35,132 bases of DNA from Deltaproteobacteria bacterium (GTDB taxonomy: Bacteria; Desulfobacterota; Desulfarculia; Adiutricales; Adiutricaceae): contig JAISEL010000089.1 in assembly GCA_031264185.1 (NCBI GenBank), positions 1-35,132 on the forward strand. The letters are read 5' to 3'. Below are positions 1 to 7,285 of the stretch, one piece after another; within the stretch, counting starts at the first letter, position 1, and every line of letters begins with the position of its first letter. The notes below the pieces were generated by a model, which saw nothing but the letters and a program-made list of their open reading frames with translations, made no database searches and was not told where the DNA came from. The translations under genes and the position numbers were made by a program.

Positions 1-591
1 AGGTACGCCCAAGGCCGGAACCTCTTTGAGTTCCGGGTCAAAGGTGAAGTCTTTGACTATGAGTTTACCAACCATGTCTATGCCTGGGGACCGGAACTGA
101 CGTACTTAAGAGCCGTGACTCCGGCTTTTCATCTGATCTCTCAGCTGTCGGTCGACTGGCGCGAGTATCAGCGGAATCCCGGCAGGGACGGCCACTACGG
201 CCAGCTGGCTCAGTACGGCCGGTTCTTTTTCGGTGACAATACGCACAGTCTGACCGTGGGCCTGGCTTATCTCTGGGGCCGTCCGGAGATGAACAGCCTG
301 GGTCACTGGGGCTGGTCCGTGCCGGTCAGGATGACCGTAAGGCCCGGCGGTGCCTGGGAGGTTTCCCCTCACGCCGGTATCACCGCCGAGTACTATAAAG
401 GCCCGGCCGTTATCTTAGACCGGGAGGCCCGCAGGGACATCAGGATCAGGTCCGGGGTCGACGTTACGTACAAACTGACCGAGCGGTGGCGGATAGAATT
501 TAACTACAGCTACAACCGAGACAATTCCAACAGCGCTTTCTACGACTATGCCCAGCACGTGGTCGGTTTGGGGATGTCCTGGGGTTTTTAG
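1..591 (+). CDS. C-terminal part of an outer-membrane beta-barrel protein (partial, Slam/DUF560-like)
   Basis: The reading frame is open from the first base, so the gene begins outside the window; 196 residues are visible. The segment alternates hydrophobic and polar residues, is rich in Tyr, Trp and Arg, and ends in the motif GLGMSWGF with a terminal Phe, the usual signal for outer-membrane barrel assembly. The last strands (motif YSYNRDNSN followed by FYDYAQHVVGLGMSW) resemble the C-terminus of TPR-plus-barrel proteins of the DUF560/surface lipoprotein assembly modifier (Slam) type; this family assignment is from memory and tentative. The next gene starts 22 bp downstream and encodes a signal-peptide protein, so the two are probably co-transcribed and may work together at the cell surface. 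Barrel nature is fairly sure; substrate and exact family are not. Confidence 0.65.
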   Translation, partial: RYAQGRNLFEFRVKGEVFDYEFTNHVYAWGPELTYLRAVTPAFHLISQLSVDWREYQRNPGRDGHYGQLAQYGRFFFGDNTHSLTVGLAYLWGRPEMNSLGHWGWSVPVRMTVRPGGAWEVSPHAGITAEYYKGPAVILDREARRDIRIRSGVDVTYKLTERWRIEFNYSYNRDNSNSAFYDYAQHVVGLGMSWGF

Positions 592-613
592 GTCTGAGAG
601 ACAGGAGAATATT

Positions 614-3343
614 ATGAGTCATTTAGAAAAATACCTGATTTTACCGCTTGTTTTGGCGGTGATACTATTACGGGGCGGTTCAGAACTGCTGGCTCAGACC
701 GGAGAAGTTACAATACTTAAAATAGCCGGCAAAGCCGAGATTTTGGAACAGGGCCGCAGTGTGGCGGCTAAAGAAGGTCAGAGAATAAGACCGGGTCAGT
801 CAGTCCGTCTGGTCGGAGGCGGGGAGGTCAGTATTTCTTCCCAGAATGACCGGATCAGGATCCGGGTCCAGGACGATACCACTTTAAAGTATGACGGCGA
901 TACTGGCGCCAACACCCTGCCCTGGAGCCGTACGAATCCCGATTACCGGAAAATAGCAGCCGAAGATAAAAAAGTACCTCAGTTCTCAGTGCCGGTCGGT
1001 CGTCTGGAAGTGGAAGTAGTGCCGGGCCAGGAACTCCGGCTCGTCTGTCCTTTAATTATGGCCGCAGTCAGAGGGACTGTATTTTTGGTTAATGTTGAGT
1101 ACGACGGAACCTCCAGAATCTCAACTTTGGAAGGCGTAGTGGCCACTTACGGGCGTCACGGCGAATCCCGCCTGACTCTGGCCGGTCAGAGCGCTGAAGT
1201 GACAGCCGGGCTCTATACCGGTTACCTGATCAGTCGCGGGGTAAACGTTCCGTCCGGCGGCACCTGGCAGGACGTGCCGGCCGGCACCCAGGAAAGGGTG
1301 GATAATGAGACCTTAGGCGGTATTTTTGCAGAAGGCGGGGGAGGCGGTTTACTGGGAGCCGTGCTGGCTAATCCCAGCGCCAGTCCCACAGCCGGGGTTA
1401 ACGCTTTAGCCGTGGAAGCGGCCGGCGGAGACACAGGCTCACTTTTCGTGGAGAGTCCTTTAGGCCAGGCCCAAGGCCCTGGGGCTGCTTCGGAAACAGG
1501 AGCGGCTTCCGGAACAGGGGGCCTGCCGAATTCATCTCTGCTGGCTCAGGGGCTGCCGGATATTGTTAAACCCGTCAGCTCAGGCAGCGGTCCGAAACCA
1601 GGCTTTGTTGTCAGTTTTCTGGCCCCGCCCGGATCGTCTTTCATTGACCGCAATTACGTGAAATTTGACCTGGATTTAGGGACCGGGCATATAACCAACG
1701 CCTCTTTTGCTCTGGCTTACGCCCGGCCCCATTCAACGTTCGGGGAAGCCTACACGACTATGACAGCAACTGGCGGCAGCGGCCGGCTCGATCCGGCCAC
1801 GCTCAATTTTTTGATAAGCGATTTTGACTCTTCAAGCGGCAGCGAATTTTGGGAAAATTACACGTACGGAGCCTACGGGTATTTAGGGTCCGGCACAACC
1901 TTAAGCGGCAGCTTAAGCGGACCCGTCAATTACGGTCAGGCCGTCTCAGGAGCACTGACCCCGGATTATTTTTACTACTCCATGCCTTCGGGGACCGACA
2001 TGCCTTCCTCTCTGCCATTTTCCGGCTTACTCGAACAAAAACCCATGGTTCATGTCCTGGGCACTTTCAGCATTCCCAATGTTTTAACGGCCATCAGCAA
2101 CAGTTTTGAGTTCTCCCTGAACCTCAATACCGGCCGCATAACGGATCCGTTTATTGTTTTGGACTATACGGACACCTCCAGCCGGGACATTATAATTTAT
2201 CTCTACGACGGCACGGGCCAGCTGACCAACGGTGCCTTTGCCGTCGACACGACTAAAGGCTCCATTGCCGGTTATTACGGCTATAAAAATCCTCAGGGCC
2301 GCCTGAGCGGAACTTTTAACAGCTCCGACCCGGCGGCAGGCACTTTGGTCAACGCCGGCGGGGCTTTGAACTTAAGCGCCGGAGCGGCTCCGGCTTATAT
2401 CCCGGCTTCGGTGCCTATAGCCGGCGGCCAGATTCAGGACAGCCTGCCGCCTCCGGCTAATGTGGAACTGAGAACGGTCCACTTCATAGGCGCAATCAGC
2501 GGCGGGACTTATTACTACTCTAATTTTTTGACATTCGATCTGGATTTAGCCACCGGTCTGATTGAAAACGGAGCTTTCGATCTGGAATATGACCGATACC
2601 ACCCCTACACCTCCACTGCCAGGACAACTTTAAGAGCTTACGGCGGCAGCGGCAGCCTTAATCCCAGGACCTTAAATTTCAGCATCAGCGGCTTTGACAC
2701 TGTCTACGGCCCCAGAAACCAATTTCAGGAAGATGTGTTGTTTCCATATACCTATGGCCAGTTCGGGCCGGGCACAACTTTGAGCGGAACTTTAGGCGGC
2801 TCCCCAGGTTACGGACAAACTGTTTCCGGGACCCTGGCCCCTGACTATAATTACACTTTTCTTACGTCTCCTTCAGATATGCCGGCCGCAGTGGCCTTCG
2901 GCGGCACAGTTGAGAAAAACCCCCTGGTCAATGTTTCCGGCACGTTTAATATCCCCGATGCTTCAAATGTTTATGCCAACCATTTTGGGTTCAGGCTTAA
3001 TCTTAATACCGGAGCTGTCAGCGCTCCGATAGATTTCATTACTGTGGATTATGAGGATACTTCGAGTAACCCCATAACCATGAAGCTGTCTTACGGCAGC
3101 GGCTCCCTGACCAATAACGCCTTTGCCGTGACCACCAATGAAGGGGGTGTGGTAGCCGGGATGTATATAGCCATGAACCCGACCGCTACCCTAACCGGAA
3201 CATTTGACACCAACCGGCCTGATGAAGGGGCGGCGGTCAATCCGGGGGGGACTCTGACCTTAAGCGGTCTGGGAGGGACTCCGCCGAGCTACCTGCCCAC
3301 GACTATCCCTATTCAGGGCGGTCAGGTCGGCAGGATCCGGTAG
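614..3343 (+). CDS. Secreted FecR-domain protein with two large internal repeats
   Basis: The protein has 909 residues. I chose the ATG at 614 because AGGAG lies about 8 bases upstream and the protein then begins with a clear signal peptide (hydrophobic run LILPLVLAVILL, cleavage near LLAQ). There is no lipobox Cys. Residues about 37-200 form a FecR-type domain (GQRIRPGQSVRL, then PVGRLEVEV, AVRGTVF and STLEGVV). A Gly/Ala/Pro-rich linker follows to about residue 325. The rest is two tandem copies of a roughly 285-residue unit (about 326-611 and 614-909); each copy carries FDLDL.TG.I, SG.L.P.TLNF.IS.FD, G.GTTLSG, VSG.L.PDY, VSGTF.IP and LNLNTG, and ends PI.GGQ. The repeats are beta-rich and look like adhesin or barrel-handle modules. 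It probably works in the periplasm or on the surface, perhaps with the upstream barrel. Ligand unknown. Confidence 0.75.
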   Translation: MSHLEKYLILPLVLAVILLRGGSELLAQTGEVTILKIAGKAEILEQGRSVAAKEGQRIRPGQSVRLVGGGEVSISSQNDRIRIRVQDDTTLKYDGDTGANTLPWSRTNPDYRKIAAEDKKVPQFSVPVGRLEVEVVPGQELRLVCPLIMAAVRGTVFLVNVEYDGTSRISTLEGVVATYGRHGESRLTLAGQSAEVTAGLYTGYLISRGVNVPSGGTWQDVPAGTQERVDNETLGGIFAEGGGGGLLGAVLANPSASPTAGVNALAVEAAGGDTGSLFVESPLGQAQGPGAASETGAASGTGGLPNSSLLAQGLPDIVKPVSSGSGPKPGFVVSFLAPPGSSFIDRNYVKFDLDLGTGHITNASFALAYARPHSTFGEAYTTMTATGGSGRLDPATLNFLISDFDSSSGSEFWENYTYGAYGYLGSGTTLSGSLSGPVNYGQAVSGALTPDYFYYSMPSGTDMPSSLPFSGLLEQKPMVHVLGTFSIPNVLTAISNSFEFSLNLNTGRITDPFIVLDYTDTSSRDIIIYLYDGTGQLTNGAFAVDTTKGSIAGYYGYKNPQGRLSGTFNSSDPAAGTLVNAGGALNLSAGAAPAYIPASVPIAGGQIQDSLPPPANVELRTVHFIGAISGGTYYYSNFLTFDLDLATGLIENGAFDLEYDRYHPYTSTARTTLRAYGGSGSLNPRTLNFSISGFDTVYGPRNQFQEDVLFPYTYGQFGPGTTLSGTLGGSPGYGQTVSGTLAPDYNYTFLTSPSDMPAAVAFGGTVEKNPLVNVSGTFNIPDASNVYANHFGFRLNLNTGAVSAPIDFITVDYEDTSSNPITMKLSYGSGSLTNNAFAVTTNEGGVVAGMYIAMNPTATLTGTFDTNRPDEGAAVNPGGTLTLSGLGGTPPSYLPTTIPIQGGQVGRIR

Positions 3344-3631: not shown

Positions 3632-4200
3632 TTAAGATAATGCCTTTGGCACAGCCGGATTTGCCGTGATCATATGTTTTTTTACTTTCTTTGTGCCGTT
3701 TTGCGCTCCCTTAAGGGTTTTGCGGACATTTGAATTAAGTTCCTCCTGTTCATGAGGGCGGGGCAGCTTGCGCAGCGCACTTTTTAATATGCTTTTCAGA
3801 TGCTCATCAGGGTCCGGCTCCGGCGGATACGGAGGCAGACGGAAAATCACAATCCTGTCATGATGATTTTTCAGCAGCGCAGCAGCCTTTTCCGAATGAT
3901 GAGCTCTAAGGCTGTCAGCTGCAAGAAAAACTTTACTTGAAGATCTTGCCGCAAGCTTCTTCATGAAATTGATAAGTGCACCAATTTCTGCTGACTCCGA
4001 AGATGGCGGTTATGACATCTTTCCAATAAGCGGAACAGCTGAAATGATATTCAGTGCAAGGCGCCTGCCTGTGGCCGTAAAGCCAAAAAACGGATCAGAA
4101 ACAGTCGGTATAAGGAGTTTTGCCTCCGTAACGAATCTGCTTCCAGTAACTGTTCTGCTGCTGCTCTTACGGGATATCCGGGCGCGGCGGTAATAAAACC
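3632..4200 (-). pseudogene. Decayed IS630-family transposase (first lineage)
   Basis: The minus-strand frame from 3964 to 3632 encodes the end of an IS630-type DDE domain: VFLAADSLRAHH carries the second catalytic Asp, and PPYPPEPDPDEHL matches the usual PPYSPELNPDEYLN with its catalytic Glu. The same frame continues upstream through an internal stop (near 4013) into RRLALNIISAV, which fits the ISAI segment of the family, and TEAKLLIPTVSDP, where the first catalytic Asp (usually DEA) has become Thr. The N-terminal DNA-binding half is missing. The element is therefore inactive. It sits between the FecR gene and the 3' end of the glycosyltransferase operon. Confidence 0.75.
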
Positions 4201-4340: not shown

Positions 4341-5597
4341 TTACCCCAGGGCGCCCAAAGCGTCTGCGGCCTCCAGGAATCGCTTTCTGGAGACTGAATC
4401 AGGCCAGATTTTAAGGGCCACGGCTCGGAAAAAGTCCGGCTGAGGCCGGCGGCCTGGTTCCGGGCCGGGCAAATCCGGAACATAGTCCGGCTCCAGGACG
4501 GCGCAGGCTCCTTCCCGGATAATCAGGGCCTGCCGCTGTTCTGCTGTCGGCTCTCCGAGCGGAGTGAGTTTATACCCGAAACTGTCCAGACTGGTCAGGA
4601 ATGCGCCTTGAAGGTTTTCCGGCTTTTTGCTGTTCAGGATACAATTGACCGCCTCAGCTGCCTGGCAGACCTCCGGAACAGCCTGACAGAGGCGGGAGGG
4701 ACAGGGCCGGCCTTCCGAGCAGGGGGCGCAGGGAGCCGGAGTCTGGATAACCAGCTGATTCTCTCTGTAAGGTCCGGTCTCTCCGGCCCAAGCCGGTCCG
4801 AAAAAAAGGCTTACGACCTCGGTGCCTAAGGCGGCCCCCAAATGCATAACTCCGGTGTCGCCGGAGATCAGAAGCCTGAGTCCGCTGACTGTTCCGGCCA
4901 GCTCGGATAAATCAGTCTGTCCCGCCAGATTCGTCAGTTCTGTCTCCGGACTTATGTTTTGACAGACGGCCTTAGCCAGAGCCCTTTCCCCCGGTCCCCC
5001 CAGCAGGACCGGTCTGAGCCCGAATTTACGGGCTAAAATTTCGGCTATGGCCGTAAATTTCTCTCTCGGCCAGCGTCTTCTGGGGCTGCCCGCGCCTAGC
5101 ACCAGTCCGGCCTGCTGATATTTTTCGGAACTGAAATTTCCGGGCCAGAACAGTTTTCTGTCAGCTAAAAAGCCTGGTTCAATGCGGCGCCAGATATCGA
5201 CTAAATTGAAAGGGGACAGGCGGCGGTTTATTTTAAGGACATTTAAAGCTATTTCCTGGGCCTGGGGCAGAATCAGGCGGCCTTTTCTCTGGTGGGGGCC
5301 GAAGATCGCTGAGCCGGGGTTGGCGGCCAGTATTTTGTCGGCCAGAGCCAGAGCCGGGGGAGCCATGGACAGATTATAGACAGTCAGGCGGCCCGGCGGA
5401 ATGTTTTTTAAATTTGGATCTTTTAAGTCAACTTCCAGGACTTCGGTAAATAAATTGGAGATTTTAGCCGCCTCGGTGACCGATTTCTGGGCCGTTAATA
5501 CATAGATCTCGTCCGCTCTTTGACTCAGGCTTTTAAATACCGGGCTGGCCTGGATAAAGTCCCCCAGTTTGGCTAAGGCCAGGACCAGGGCTTTCAT
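4341..5597 (-). CDS. GT9-family glycosyltransferase (ADP-heptose:LPS heptosyltransferase-like)
   Basis: The protein has 418 residues. It starts MKALVLALAKLGDFIQASPV, the typical GT9 N-terminus (nucleotide-sugar transferase, GT-B fold). The C-terminal Rossmann half shows GLVLGAGSPRRRWPREKF and SGDTGVMHLGAALGTEVVSLFFGP, the conserved donor-site motif. GT9 enzymes transfer heptose or related sugars. A Cys-rich stretch (CAPCSEGRPCPSRLCQ) matches the cysteine cluster often seen after that motif. The last roughly 100 residues are an extra tail that I do not recognise. The ATG overlaps the stop of the preceding gene (ATGA), so translation is coupled; this is the last gene of the operon. Family sure, sugar unknown. 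Confidence 0.85.
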   Translation of the reverse strand: MKALVLALAKLGDFIQASPVFKSLSQRADEIYVLTAQKSVTEAAKISNLFTEVLEVDLKDPNLKNIPPGRLTVYNLSMAPPALALADKILAANPGSAIFGPHQRKGRLILPQAQEIALNVLKINRRLSPFNLVDIWRRIEPGFLADRKLFWPGNFSSEKYQQAGLVLGAGSPRRRWPREKFTAIAEILARKFGLRPVLLGGPGERALAKAVCQNISPETELTNLAGQTDLSELAGTVSGLRLLISGDTGVMHLGAALGTEVVSLFFGPAWAGETGPYRENQLVIQTPAPCAPCSEGRPCPSRLCQAVPEVCQAAEAVNCILNSKKPENLQGAFLTSLDSFGYKLTPLGEPTAEQRQALIIREGACAVLEPDYVPDLPGPEPGRRPQPDFFRAVALKIWPDSVSRKRFLEAADALGALG

Positions 5598-7285
5598 GAA
5601 CCGGCTCCGAATATGACCTTGAACATCTCTTGGAGGCGGTGGGTGTAAAGATGCTGCCCCAGGACCCGCGTTTTGGCTTTTTGGGCCGCGTTCTGTCTTT
5701 CCCTGGGGTGAGCCAGGTACTCTTTGGCCAGGCTTTTGGCTTCCTGAGGCGAGGCATAGGTCACTATTTCGTCCTGTTCAAAAAGGCCGTTCAACTGCTT
5801 TCTGAAGTCGGTCAGCAGAAAGCCCCCGCAGGCCGGCACGTCAAAGACCCTCTGGTTGAGGCCGGTTTTCATCTGGGCGCTGGTGATGTTTAAATTTACG
5901 GCCGTGGAGCGGTAAAAAGGGGCCAGATCCCGGTAGTAATCCAATTGACCGGCCAGAGAGACCTCGGGCAGGATTCCGGACCAGCCGCTGTCGCCGCAGA
6001 CAGTCGGGTTCAGATCCTTGAGGGTCCTCAGGACCTTGATTCTGGCCAGACGGCCGGCTCTCCAGGTAATTAAGGCTAAGAGGTTTATTTTCTGGTCCGG
6101 ATCCAAGTTTTCCTTTTCCGCCAGAAGGCCGCTTAACCCGTCCGGCAGGAGATCGGCATTTTTTAAAAATTTAACAGCCATCCGGTCAACGGCGGCCAGA
6201 TGATGAGCTTTAAGCCCCGACAGGGCCAGATATTTTTCCGTGGCCGCAGTTAAGCTGTCGCCGACAAAAGCCAGGCCCCGTCTCAGGGGAGTGTCTTCCT
6301 GGCGGAAAATAGCTGGATCGGTGGCTAAGGGCAGGTAGTGAACTTTACTGAAACCGTTCTGCCGCAAAAACTCCAAATAATCACTGTCCCAGGAAAAGAC
6401 AAAAATATCGCCCTGAGGTCCGGGTTTAAGGATGTATGCCGGGCTGTCGACAAACCAGGAGGCTACCGGCAGGCCCAGCCGGGCAAAGACACTGGCTAAA
6501 ATGCCTTCCGTGTCCAGGCCTAAATGATTGACAGTCAAAACCAGTTCCGGACGGTAGTCCTTAATCTCCCGGAGAAGCTGCTGGTACTCCCGCCCTTCGG
6601 TCTTGGTCAGGGAAAAGCTCCACCTTCTGACGGAGGCCCTTAAGCTTTCGGCGGCCCTGGGGATCTCCCTGGCCAGATAGTAGCCGGCGTCTAAAAATAA
6701 AATCCGGGGCGGCTTTATCCGGCGGGCTTTCATTTTTGAGGGATAGAGATGACTGTCCAGCCTTAAATTGGCCGGCCGGGCCAGAAGCGTCCGGGGGGCA
6801 TCCGGCGGCAGCCGGGAGCCCGGGCGGTTTTCTAAAAAAAGCCTGAAGCCCGCCGCCTTTAGAACAGTCTTTAAATCCCGGGCCGCTAAGGCCGCCGCCG
6901 CCAGTTCCGGACGAGCTTCCCAGAGCCACAGAGGGCTGTCCGGGGGCAGTTTCTGCAGAAGATATTCCAGATGGTAGCCCAGGCCGAAGCCTATGACCGT
7001 TAAACCGTGAGTCACGGATCCGGCTTTTAAAAACTCATCAGCCAGAAGAATATCTTCTTTCTGGGGATCTAAGCCGCTGGTCAGTCTTTTGGGGCCGGCG
7101 CCCAAATCAATGGCCAGGGCCGGAAAACTGCTGCGGCCCTGAGTTAAAATTACTTCGCCGGCGGAAAAAGGAAAACAGAAGCTTTCTCCTCTCATCTGCG
7201 GCCGTAAATCTTCGAGCCTGGCCGCTTCATGAGGCTGCTTCTGCCTTAATAAGGCCAAATTTTGGTCAAACCAGGAGAGTATCAC
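5594..7285 (-). CDS. CgeB-like glycosyltransferase with Maf-type N-terminal module
   Basis: The protein has 563 residues and a GTG start (VILSWFDQN), overlapping the end of the GT4 gene by 20 bases. The N-terminal 180 residues contain TVIGFGLGYHLEYLLQKLP followed by an acidic Glu position (LWEARPEL). The same layout (GLGLGWHL...VVYEP) occurs at the N-terminus of the Maf-like protein encoded at 9564-11174. Residues about 190-560 form a CgeB/DUF3880-type glycosyltransferase: PPRILFLDAGYYL, SWFVDSPAYI, FSWDSDYLEFL and, near the end, LNLNITS with RVFDVPACGGFLLTDF, the CgeB signature. It probably transfers a sugar to a protein or glycan acceptor in the cytoplasm. The fusion of the two modules is noteworthy. 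Confidence 0.75.
   Translation of the reverse strand: MILSWFDQNLALLRQKQPHEAARLEDLRPQMRGESFCFPFSAGEVILTQGRSSFPALAIDLGAGPKRLTSGLDPQKEDILLADEFLKAGSVTHGLTVIGFGLGYHLEYLLQKLPPDSPLWLWEARPELAAAALAARDLKTVLKAAGFRLFLENRPGSRLPPDAPRTLLARPANLRLDSHLYPSKMKARRIKPPRILFLDAGYYLAREIPRAAESLRASVRRWSFSLTKTEGREYQQLLREIKDYRPELVLTVNHLGLDTEGILASVFARLGLPVASWFVDSPAYILKPGPQGDIFVFSWDSDYLEFLRQNGFSKVHYLPLATDPAIFRQEDTPLRRGLAFVGDSLTAATEKYLALSGLKAHHLAAVDRMAVKFLKNADLLPDGLSGLLAEKENLDPDQKINLLALITWRAGRLARIKVLRTLKDLNPTVCGDSGWSGILPEVSLAGQLDYYRDLAPFYRSTAVNLNITSAQMKTGLNQRVFDVPACGGFLLTDFRKQLNGLFEQDEIVTYASPQEAKSLAKEYLAHPRERQNAAQKAKTRVLGQHLYTHRLQEMFKVIFGAGS

What the first reader, a model, noticed from the sequence alone, without database searches (positions are those of the whole stretch)
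1..3343. Barrel plus FecR/duplicated-repeat protein as a possible surface-display pair
A Slam/DUF560-like barrel end is followed 22 bp later by a signal-peptide protein with a FecR domain and two 285-residue beta-rich repeats ending PI.GGQ. Slam-type barrels export proteins with C-terminal beta-barrel handles; the repeats could be such handles in tandem, joined to a FecR module, which would be an uncommon design.
Basis: inference. Interest (0 to 1): 0.5.

Follow-up and report, generated by a model that had tools for sequence, protein, structure and literature searches.

The report
Outer-membrane exporter with FecR barrel cargo
A bacterium related to Candidatus Adiutrix carries a gene pair that looks like an outer-membrane export channel plus its own passenger, a sensor-like FecR domain followed by four small protein barrels; related pairs occur in several other bacterial groups, some of them beside signalling genes, which hints that this kind of channel may also serve in sensing.

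Summary
The barrel (1-591, cut by the contig start) scores for SlipAM/DUF560 (Slam, type XI secretion; 25.9 bits, cut-off 22), and full-length same-genus relatives have an N-terminal TPR domain. The cargo (614-3343) is signal-like start, FecR, linker and two 48%-identical repeats. Each repeat is two units: a profile built only from cargo tails of other genera hits the window protein four times. One unit folds with high confidence as an eight-stranded barrel; another resembles the C-terminal barrels of HphA, fHbp, TbpB and NHBA. The design is not rare: FecR genes abut related barrels in 24 of 28 and 22 of 28 loci, against 0 of 30 Omp85 controls. Four distant relatives carry FecR and TbpB_B_D in one protein near a barrel of this kind. 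CHASE2 genes lie close to 7 of 28 and 10 of 15 pairs, but to none of 8 in the window's genus. My searches found no paper joining FecR with T11SS. Export itself, and which side FecR ends up on, are not shown; the sequence link from window units to known cargo is weak.

The parts
1..591 (+). C-terminal 196 residues of a SlipAM/DUF560 (Slam, T11SS-type) outer-membrane barrel; cut by the contig start
   Evidence: Pfam SlipAM 25.9 bits (cut-off 22) over profile 107-288/288; 61-77% identical to five full-length barrels of the same genus, four of which were scanned and have TPR + SlipAM over cut-off
603..607 (+). AGGAG, ribosome-binding-like, in the 22-bp gap between barrel stop and cargo start
   Evidence: sequence
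614..3343 (+). cargo gene, 909 aa
   Evidence: open frame with start and stop
614..697 (+). signal peptide, about residues 1-28, no lipobox Cys
   Evidence: read by eye; no signal-peptide predictor at hand
842..1141 (+). FecR domain, residues 77-176; the matched fold spans about 59-202
   Evidence: Pfam 27.5 bits; model matches PupR CSSD Z 11.4 and BDI_1681 Z 11.6
1367..1594 (+). low-confidence linker, about residues 252-327
   Evidence: pLDDT under 50 at model residues 226-301
1595..2044 (+). barrel unit 1 (residues 328-477)
   Evidence: profile hit; matches NHBA-C Z 10.4, HphA 10.0, fHbp 9.5, TbpB C-lobe 8.1
2045..2464 (+). barrel unit 2 (residues 478-617)
   Evidence: profile hit; own model pLDDT 92.7, pTM 0.85, eight strands; best structural match OmpX, then NHBA-C
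2465..2923 (+). barrel unit 3 (residues 618-770)
   Evidence: profile hit; part of repeat 2, 48% identical to repeat 1; not folded itself
2924..3340 (+). barrel unit 4 (residues 771-909)
   Evidence: profile hit; part of repeat 2; not folded itself

Best explanation
The two genes are a type XI secretion (Slam-like) outer-membrane translocon and its own cargo. The cargo crosses the inner membrane by Sec; its C-terminal eight-stranded barrels are recognised by the TPR/SlipAM protein, which carries at least the barrel tail to the cell surface. There the tail (four barrels here, two in the other same-genus cargos seen, one in the relatives of other genera used for the profile) is the changing outward part; the FecR domain is the more conserved N-terminal module. 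Shown: family of the translocon, cargo architecture, barrel fold in silico, conserved pairing, contrast in divergence between paralogues. Inferred: Sec export, recognition, translocation, surface exposure.
For: SlipAM in the window and TPR + SlipAM in relatives. FecR gene abutting the barrel in 24 of 28 loci and within 1.5-kb flanks in 22 of 28 further loci (L103 is the same place as L081), against 0 of 30 Omp85 loci. Three gene arrangements (barrel-FecR, FecR-barrel, opposite strands) argue for function rather than inherited order. Unit 2: eight strands; unit 1: best matches are C-terminal barrels of NHBA, HphA, fHbp, haemophilin, TbpB. Four of seven distant FecR relatives scanned carry FecR and TbpB_B_D over cut-off in one protein. 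FecR proteins without a barrel in the fetched stretch lack the unit, 0 of 8. In the three paralogue pairs compared, barrel and FecR stay alike while the tail diverges.
Against: No Pfam cargo domain in the window protein. Unit 2 alone: Foldseek lists no T11SS cargo among its 50 rows and its best VIA match is OmpX, Z 11.9, ahead of NHBA 9.4, so it may be a generic eight-stranded barrel. Profile link to TbpB_B_D tails weak. Some FecR neighbours of more distant TPR-barrels have no such tail: L121, L124, L140 with an Asp-Thr repeat. TPR_Slam stayed under cut-off wherever it matched, and SlipAM is under cut-off or absent in several relatives (see membership test). In L098-L100 the barrel is recognised only weakly (41, 32, 15 bits).
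Confidence: 0.6

Rival explanations
1. Trans-envelope sensor: the barrels are pushed out through the Slam-like pore while the FecR domain stays periplasmic at the TPR side, so the protein spans the outer membrane and reports surface events to an inner-membrane CHASE2 cyclase or HD-domain protein. The translocon serves signalling rather than secretion.
For: CHASE2 within 3 kb of the barrel in 7 of 28 loci, all seven confirmed by Pfam, and near it in 10 of 15 distant loci by my own profile, directly after the FecR gene in 8 and before it in 2. FecR near CHASE2 also without barrel or tail (L061-L063, L131, L132, L135). FecR fold = cell-surface-signalling domain of PupR. Precedent: Sinorhizobium NsrA barrel feeding CHASE2 cyclases (passages of PMC7529298, PMC13001267); the four-gene Campylobacterota cluster (passages of PMC9239204).
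Against: No CHASE2 near the pair in the window genus: 0 of 8 loci L073-L080, several cut by contig ends; the own genome has two CHASE2 genes elsewhere with no FecR or barrel hit in their fetched stretches. Starting from CHASE2, FecR lay within the 1.5-kb flanks in 4 of 30 and a barrel in 0 of 30 (flanks too short to see a barrel one gene away). No T11SS cargo is known to stay half-way (recalled).
Confidence: 0.25
2. Not a T11SS pair: an ordinary TPR-porin beside a periplasmic FecR protein whose tail is a generic eight-stranded barrel, with no translocation.
For: Unit 2 best VIA match is OmpX; the fragment also scores near cut-off for BBP2_2 and Phenol_MetA_deg; the window protein lacks a Pfam cargo domain.
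Against: Tail and barrel co-occur; FecR + TbpB_B_D in one protein near barrels of this kind; cargo barrels dominate the unit 1 matches; the cargo does not end in an aromatic residue as the barrel does (the meaning of that ending is recalled).
Confidence: 0.12

Closest known systems
Type XI secretion system / Slam translocons (DUF560, PF04575 SlipAM)
   Same: TPR domain plus SlipAM barrel, next to a cargo with C-terminal eight-stranded barrel
   Different: cargo carries a FecR domain; barrels in tandem up to four; found here in Deltaproteobacteria, Desulfovibrio, Helicobacteraceae, Synergistales, Deferribacteraceae and a few betaproteobacterial records; in part near CHASE2 genes. FecR does not occur in the main text of PMC12282271 or PMC8406197
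TbpB, fHbp, HphA/haemophilin, NHBA
   Same: fold of the C-terminal barrel; TbpB, fHbp and haemophilins are named as T11SS cargo in PMC12282271, HphA-type haemophore as Slam-dependent in a listed title; NHBA as cargo is recalled
   Different: no Pfam match in the window units; no lipobox seen; FecR instead of handle/effector; several barrel copies. Sphingomonas and Psychrobacter proteins with two to three handle-barrel pairs are a partial precedent (PMC12282271 section 15)
Campylobacterota cluster of CHASE2 cyclase, phosphodiesterase, FecR outer membrane protein, TPR protein (PMC9239204)
   Same: FecR gene, TPR gene and CHASE2 cyclase together; L089 (Helicobacteraceae) has these three
   Different: the passages seen do not name the TPR protein as a SlipAM barrel or the FecR protein as T11SS-like cargo; the window genus lacks the cyclase near the pair
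FecR/PupR anti-sigma regulators
   Same: FecR-domain fold
   Different: signal-like start instead of a recognised anti-sigma part; barrel tail

Membership tests
T11SS outer-membrane protein (SlipAM/DUF560) | SlipAM barrel domain over curated cut-off | tested here: met
   window 25.9 vs 22 bits; relatives up to 49.2, L111 61.6, L096 90.1. Under cut-off: L031 21.2, L085 20.8, L091 20.5, L118 16.5; no match listed for L033, L035, L099, L100, L121, L123, L124 nor for the partial gene L055
T11SS outer-membrane protein (SlipAM/DUF560) | N-terminal TPR domain | tested here: met
   in full-length relatives and in the partial gene on contig C131; the window itself is cut off before it. The Slam-specific TPR_Slam model stays under cut-off (best 34.7 of 35.2, L127)
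T11SS outer-membrane protein (SlipAM/DUF560) | 14-stranded barrel | not tested
   no barrel model was made; strand number recalled
T11SS outer-membrane protein (SlipAM/DUF560) | shown to move a cargo across the outer membrane | not testable with these tools
   experiment needed
T11SS cargo | eight-stranded C-terminal barrel | tested here: met
   unit 2 model, eight strands, pLDDT 92.7; unit 1 matches. Units 3 and 4, the actual C-terminus, were not folded
T11SS cargo | sequence match to TbpB_B_D or FHBP_C | tested here: not met
   window protein: FecR only; TbpB_B_D met in relatives L136, L137, L138, L143
T11SS cargo | Sec signal peptide | tested here: inconclusive
   visible by eye, no predictor run
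T11SS cargo | pedestal/handle sheet before the barrel | not tested
   the model shows a low-confidence linker before unit 1; not examined for a pedestal
FecR anti-sigma regulator | FecR domain | tested here: met
FecR anti-sigma regulator | cytoplasmic anti-sigma domain before FecR | tested here: not met
   Pfam finds FecR only, and the protein starts with a signal-like stretch
CHASE2-cAMP cluster (PMC9239204 type) | CHASE2 gene beside the pair | tested here: not met
   none in 8 same-genus loci; the window side before position 1 is not visible; met in other lineages

The most novel reading that the evidence does not exclude
A T11SS/Slam-type translocon has been turned into half of a surface receptor: it threads the barrel tail of a FecR protein outward while the FecR domain stays inside to drive CHASE2 cyclases, a signalling route across both membranes; in the window's lineage the sensor part multiplied into several paralogous pairs with changing, tandemly duplicated tails.
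Probability: 0.22. Interest if true: 0.85.

Novelty: new variant of a known kind. Interest (0 to 1): 0.6.

Why it matters
Of ten T11SS sequence clusters only cluster 1 holds experimentally verified members, and marine cluster 3 rarely co-occurs with known barrel cargo (abstract of PMC12282271). A FecR-barrel cargo class that can be found by adjacency gives testable partners for further SlipAM proteins. It also gives the TPR and FecR genes of CHASE2-cAMP clusters a candidate molecular role.

Tried and rejected
Fusion of FecR with a CHASE2 cyclase (L142): rejected, the frame runs through a gap of unknown bases. Joining the window to contig C131: their ends overlap by 242 bases with two mismatches, so C131 is either the other half or a near-identical copy; left open. 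Foldseek on unit 2 alone gave no cargo family in its 50 rows. hhalign between unit alignments and TbpB_B_D tails: E 0.12 (13 tails of other genera) and 0.012 (all 32 units), probabilities 0.5 and 3.5%, not enough to claim homology. hmmsearch of the unit profile against PDB sequences: two entries of one intein at 0.09-0.1. Anti-phage library: nothing. NCBIfam: only matches far under cut-off. Search for NsrA itself in one S. meliloti pSymB record: two CHASE2 places, both with a FecR gene near, NsrA not identified. FecR cargo against plasmids: seven weak records.

Counts to read with care; the FecR profile was trained on 13 of the 28 loci plus the window; Pfam confirms FecR over cut-off in 12 of those 13; L084 was not given to Pfam. 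Of the other hits, L081 (23.5 of 24) and the truncated L089 (17.7) score under cut-off, and L098 and the eight same-genus loci were not scanned one by one. The four of 28 without FecR are L082 and L095 (contig cut) and L096, L097 (TbpB_B_D cargo instead). With that profile no second FecR frame appeared in any of the 28 loci, but the same-genus profile shows two more FecR fragments in L076 at 5159-5784. Loci are best hits of a 395-genome search, not a random sample; overlap with the first set beyond L103 was not checked. L136-L150 are 15 stretches that I chose from those hits. Near L143 the barrel frame is short (215 codons) and 732 bp away, and L137 passes TbpB_B_D by 0.1 bit; the barrels of L137 and L143 rest on my profile, not on Pfam. 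L016 and L021 are short stretches in which a barrel could be missed. In one search, synonymous distances over 1 are saturated, and the 30-codon signal region of one pair has dN/dS 1.25.
Full report
What is there. The window is contig C58 of a 4.4-Mb, 166-contig genome and begins inside a barrel gene. The 196-residue remainder scores 25.9 bits for SlipAM (cut-off 22) over profile positions 107-288 of 288. A 22-bp gap with AGGAG separates it from a 909-residue protein with a signal-like start, a FecR domain (27.5 bits, cut-off 24) and two repeats of 48% identity.

The missing half of the barrel. Five same-genus relatives are complete and 61-77% identical to the fragment. Four of them were scanned: all have TPR repeats and SlipAM over cut-off (22.9-42.3 bits), over profile 3-288 in three. 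The end of contig C131 of the same genome overlaps the first 242 window bases with two mismatches and carries the TPR part.

Four units, not two. I built a profile from the last 150 residues (or fewer, where cut) of 14 cargo proteins of other genera, leaving out the window and its genus. It finds four units in the window protein and two in each of eight same-genus relatives printed. So the picture is one unit in the other genera sampled, two in the genus, four here; among the cargos seen, the last doubling is in the window only.

Fold. A model of FecR plus units 1 and 2 has mean pLDDT 74.4, pTM 0.42, with a low-confidence linker. Foldseek's best PDB rows are TbpB, with a haemophore, HphA, NHBA and fHbp also listed and PupR for the FecR part; overall TM-scores are low (0.10-0.17 on the query) because the model holds several domains. 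VIA-align gives unit 1 against NHBA-C Z 10.4 (rmsd 3.1, 107 residues), HphA 10.0 (3.0, 106), an fHbp chimera 9.5 (3.0, 109), TbpB C-lobe 8.1 (3.4, 114); other barrels follow at 7-8; FecR against PupR CSSD 11.4 (2.6, 120) and BDI_1681 11.6 (2.6, 119). Unit 2 alone is predicted at pLDDT 92.7, pTM 0.85, with exactly eight strands, but its best match is OmpX, Z 11.9, before NHBA 9.4, HphA 8.9 and HpuA-C 8.7, and Foldseek alone lists no cargo in 50 rows. I read the units as eight-stranded barrels, with the cargo likeness specific for unit 1 and only compatible for unit 2.

Pairing. A scan of genome contigs with the barrel alignment returned 28 loci from named records: Deltaproteobacteria MAGs, Candidatus Adiutrix, Desulfovibrio, Helicobacteraceae, Synergistales, Deferribacteraceae, Sulfurospirillum, Zoogloeaceae, Azonexus, Thauera. 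In 24 of 28 a FecR gene abuts the barrel (gap up to 202 bp, or overlapping frames), in three gene arrangements; in L098-L100 the barrel itself is weakly recognised. With this profile no FecR frame lay elsewhere in the 28 loci; a second profile shows two further fragments in L076. Of the other four loci, two are cut by contig ends and two (Sulfurospirillum) have a large protein with Pfam TbpB_B_D at 53.5 and 51.0 bits instead. In a survey of 395 genomes of the phylum, 22 of 28 newly fetched best loci have FecR within the 1.5-kb flanks (L103 repeats L081; one of the six without, L109, is the own contig end C131). Thirty Omp85 loci of the same phylum with similar flanks have none.

Sequence bridge to known cargo. 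Seven FecR proteins of that survey, taken with longer flanks, were scanned: L136, L137, L138 and L143 hold FecR and TbpB_B_D over cut-off in one chain (L137 by 0.1 bit); L141 and L144 reach 23.3 and 23.7 against 26; L146 has FecR only. Their barrels: SlipAM over cut-off for L136 (scanned as L111), L138 (as L113) and L141; the others by my profile. The step from these tails to the window units rests on fold and position; the profile comparison is weak.

Tail goes with barrel. Eight FecR proteins with no barrel in the fetched stretch (L004, L005, L016, L021, L061-L064) lack the unit, while L065, L066 and L070 beside a barrel have it; L069 beside a barrel was missed by the profile, and L068 has FecR, tail and barrel in separate frames. 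Fragments L010, L056, L057 were left out of this count.

Conserved module, changing tail. In the three same-genome pairs compared, amino-acid identity is 0.83-0.98 in the barrel and 0.80-0.95 in FecR but 0.49-0.73 in the units. In two pairs synonymous divergence also jumps at the border (0.24 to 1.2-2.4; 0.59 to 1.2-2.0), which points to recombination or gene conversion; in the third it stays near level (0.29 to 0.30-0.42) and dN/dS rises from 0.05-0.21 in barrel, FecR and linker to 0.54-0.64 in the units. This fits an outward part under change, but also simple relaxation.

Signalling neighbours. CHASE2 proteins lie within 3 kb of the barrel in 7 of 28 loci (Pfam-confirmed, six with a cyclase and one with an HD domain). 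In 15 distant stretches that I chose, 10 have CHASE2 by my profile, directly after the FecR gene in eight and before it in two. MBL-GAF-HD proteins accompany three (L085, L091, L092). In the window's genus none of 8 loci has CHASE2 nearby; the own genome has two elsewhere. FecR also sits near CHASE2 without barrel or tail (rhizobial plasmids). From the CHASE2 side the link is a minority: FecR in 4 of 30, barrel in 0 of 30 within 1.5-kb flanks. PMC9239204 (passages) describes a Campylobacterota cluster of CHASE2 cyclase, phosphodiesterase, FecR outer membrane protein and TPR protein; L089 has three of these, and its TPR protein scores 32.6 bits for SlipAM.

Reading. The best-supported account is a T11SS-like translocon with a FecR-barrel cargo. 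Whether FecR is carried out or stays inside is open; the CHASE2 neighbours make the second possible. Literature, in the library held: FecR with DUF560, no paper; two or more of FecR, T11SS, TbpBBD, type XI secretion, six papers, none with FecR; SlipAM with FecR or CHASE2, none; a further search empty. Seen of the papers: PMC12282271 abstract, passages and section 15; PMC8406197, PMC9239204, PMC7529298, PMC13001267, PMC5192318, PMC5498481 and PMC9090332 passages; the rest listings. Fourteen strands for Slam and NHBA as cargo are recalled.

Noticed in passing
G000 contigs C131 (end), C151 (start), C166 (start), C40 (end), C97 (near end), C61:1688-2457: Further barrel or cargo pieces of the same genome lie at or near contig ends, and C61 holds a decayed copy with stops; the multicopy family may break the assembly.
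   Followed up: partly
window 3632-3964 (-): Short ORF after the cargo resembling the end of an IS630-type transposase (motif recalled, not scanned).
   Followed up: no
L096 9112-12609; L097 9112-12573: Sulfurospirillum barrels sit beside 1165- and 1153-residue proteins with a VWA domain (and CHAP in L097) plus C-terminal TbpB_B_D, an unusual T11SS cargo architecture.
   Followed up: partly
L140 1620-3335 (-): FecR protein beside a SlipAM barrel whose tail is a long Asp-Thr repeat instead of a barrel.
   Followed up: no
L085 9454-11490; L091 6924-8972; L092 2733-4754: Metallo-beta-lactamase + GAF + HD protein between the barrel and the CHASE2 cyclase.
   Followed up: partly
L076 5159-5784 (-): Two further FecR fragments near a complete pair, seen with the same-genus profile only, probably a decayed cargo copy.
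   Followed up: no
L132 9207-10094; L135 230-844: Both CHASE2 genes found on one S. meliloti pSymB record have a FecR gene nearby, one of them beside cyaD1.
   Followed up: no
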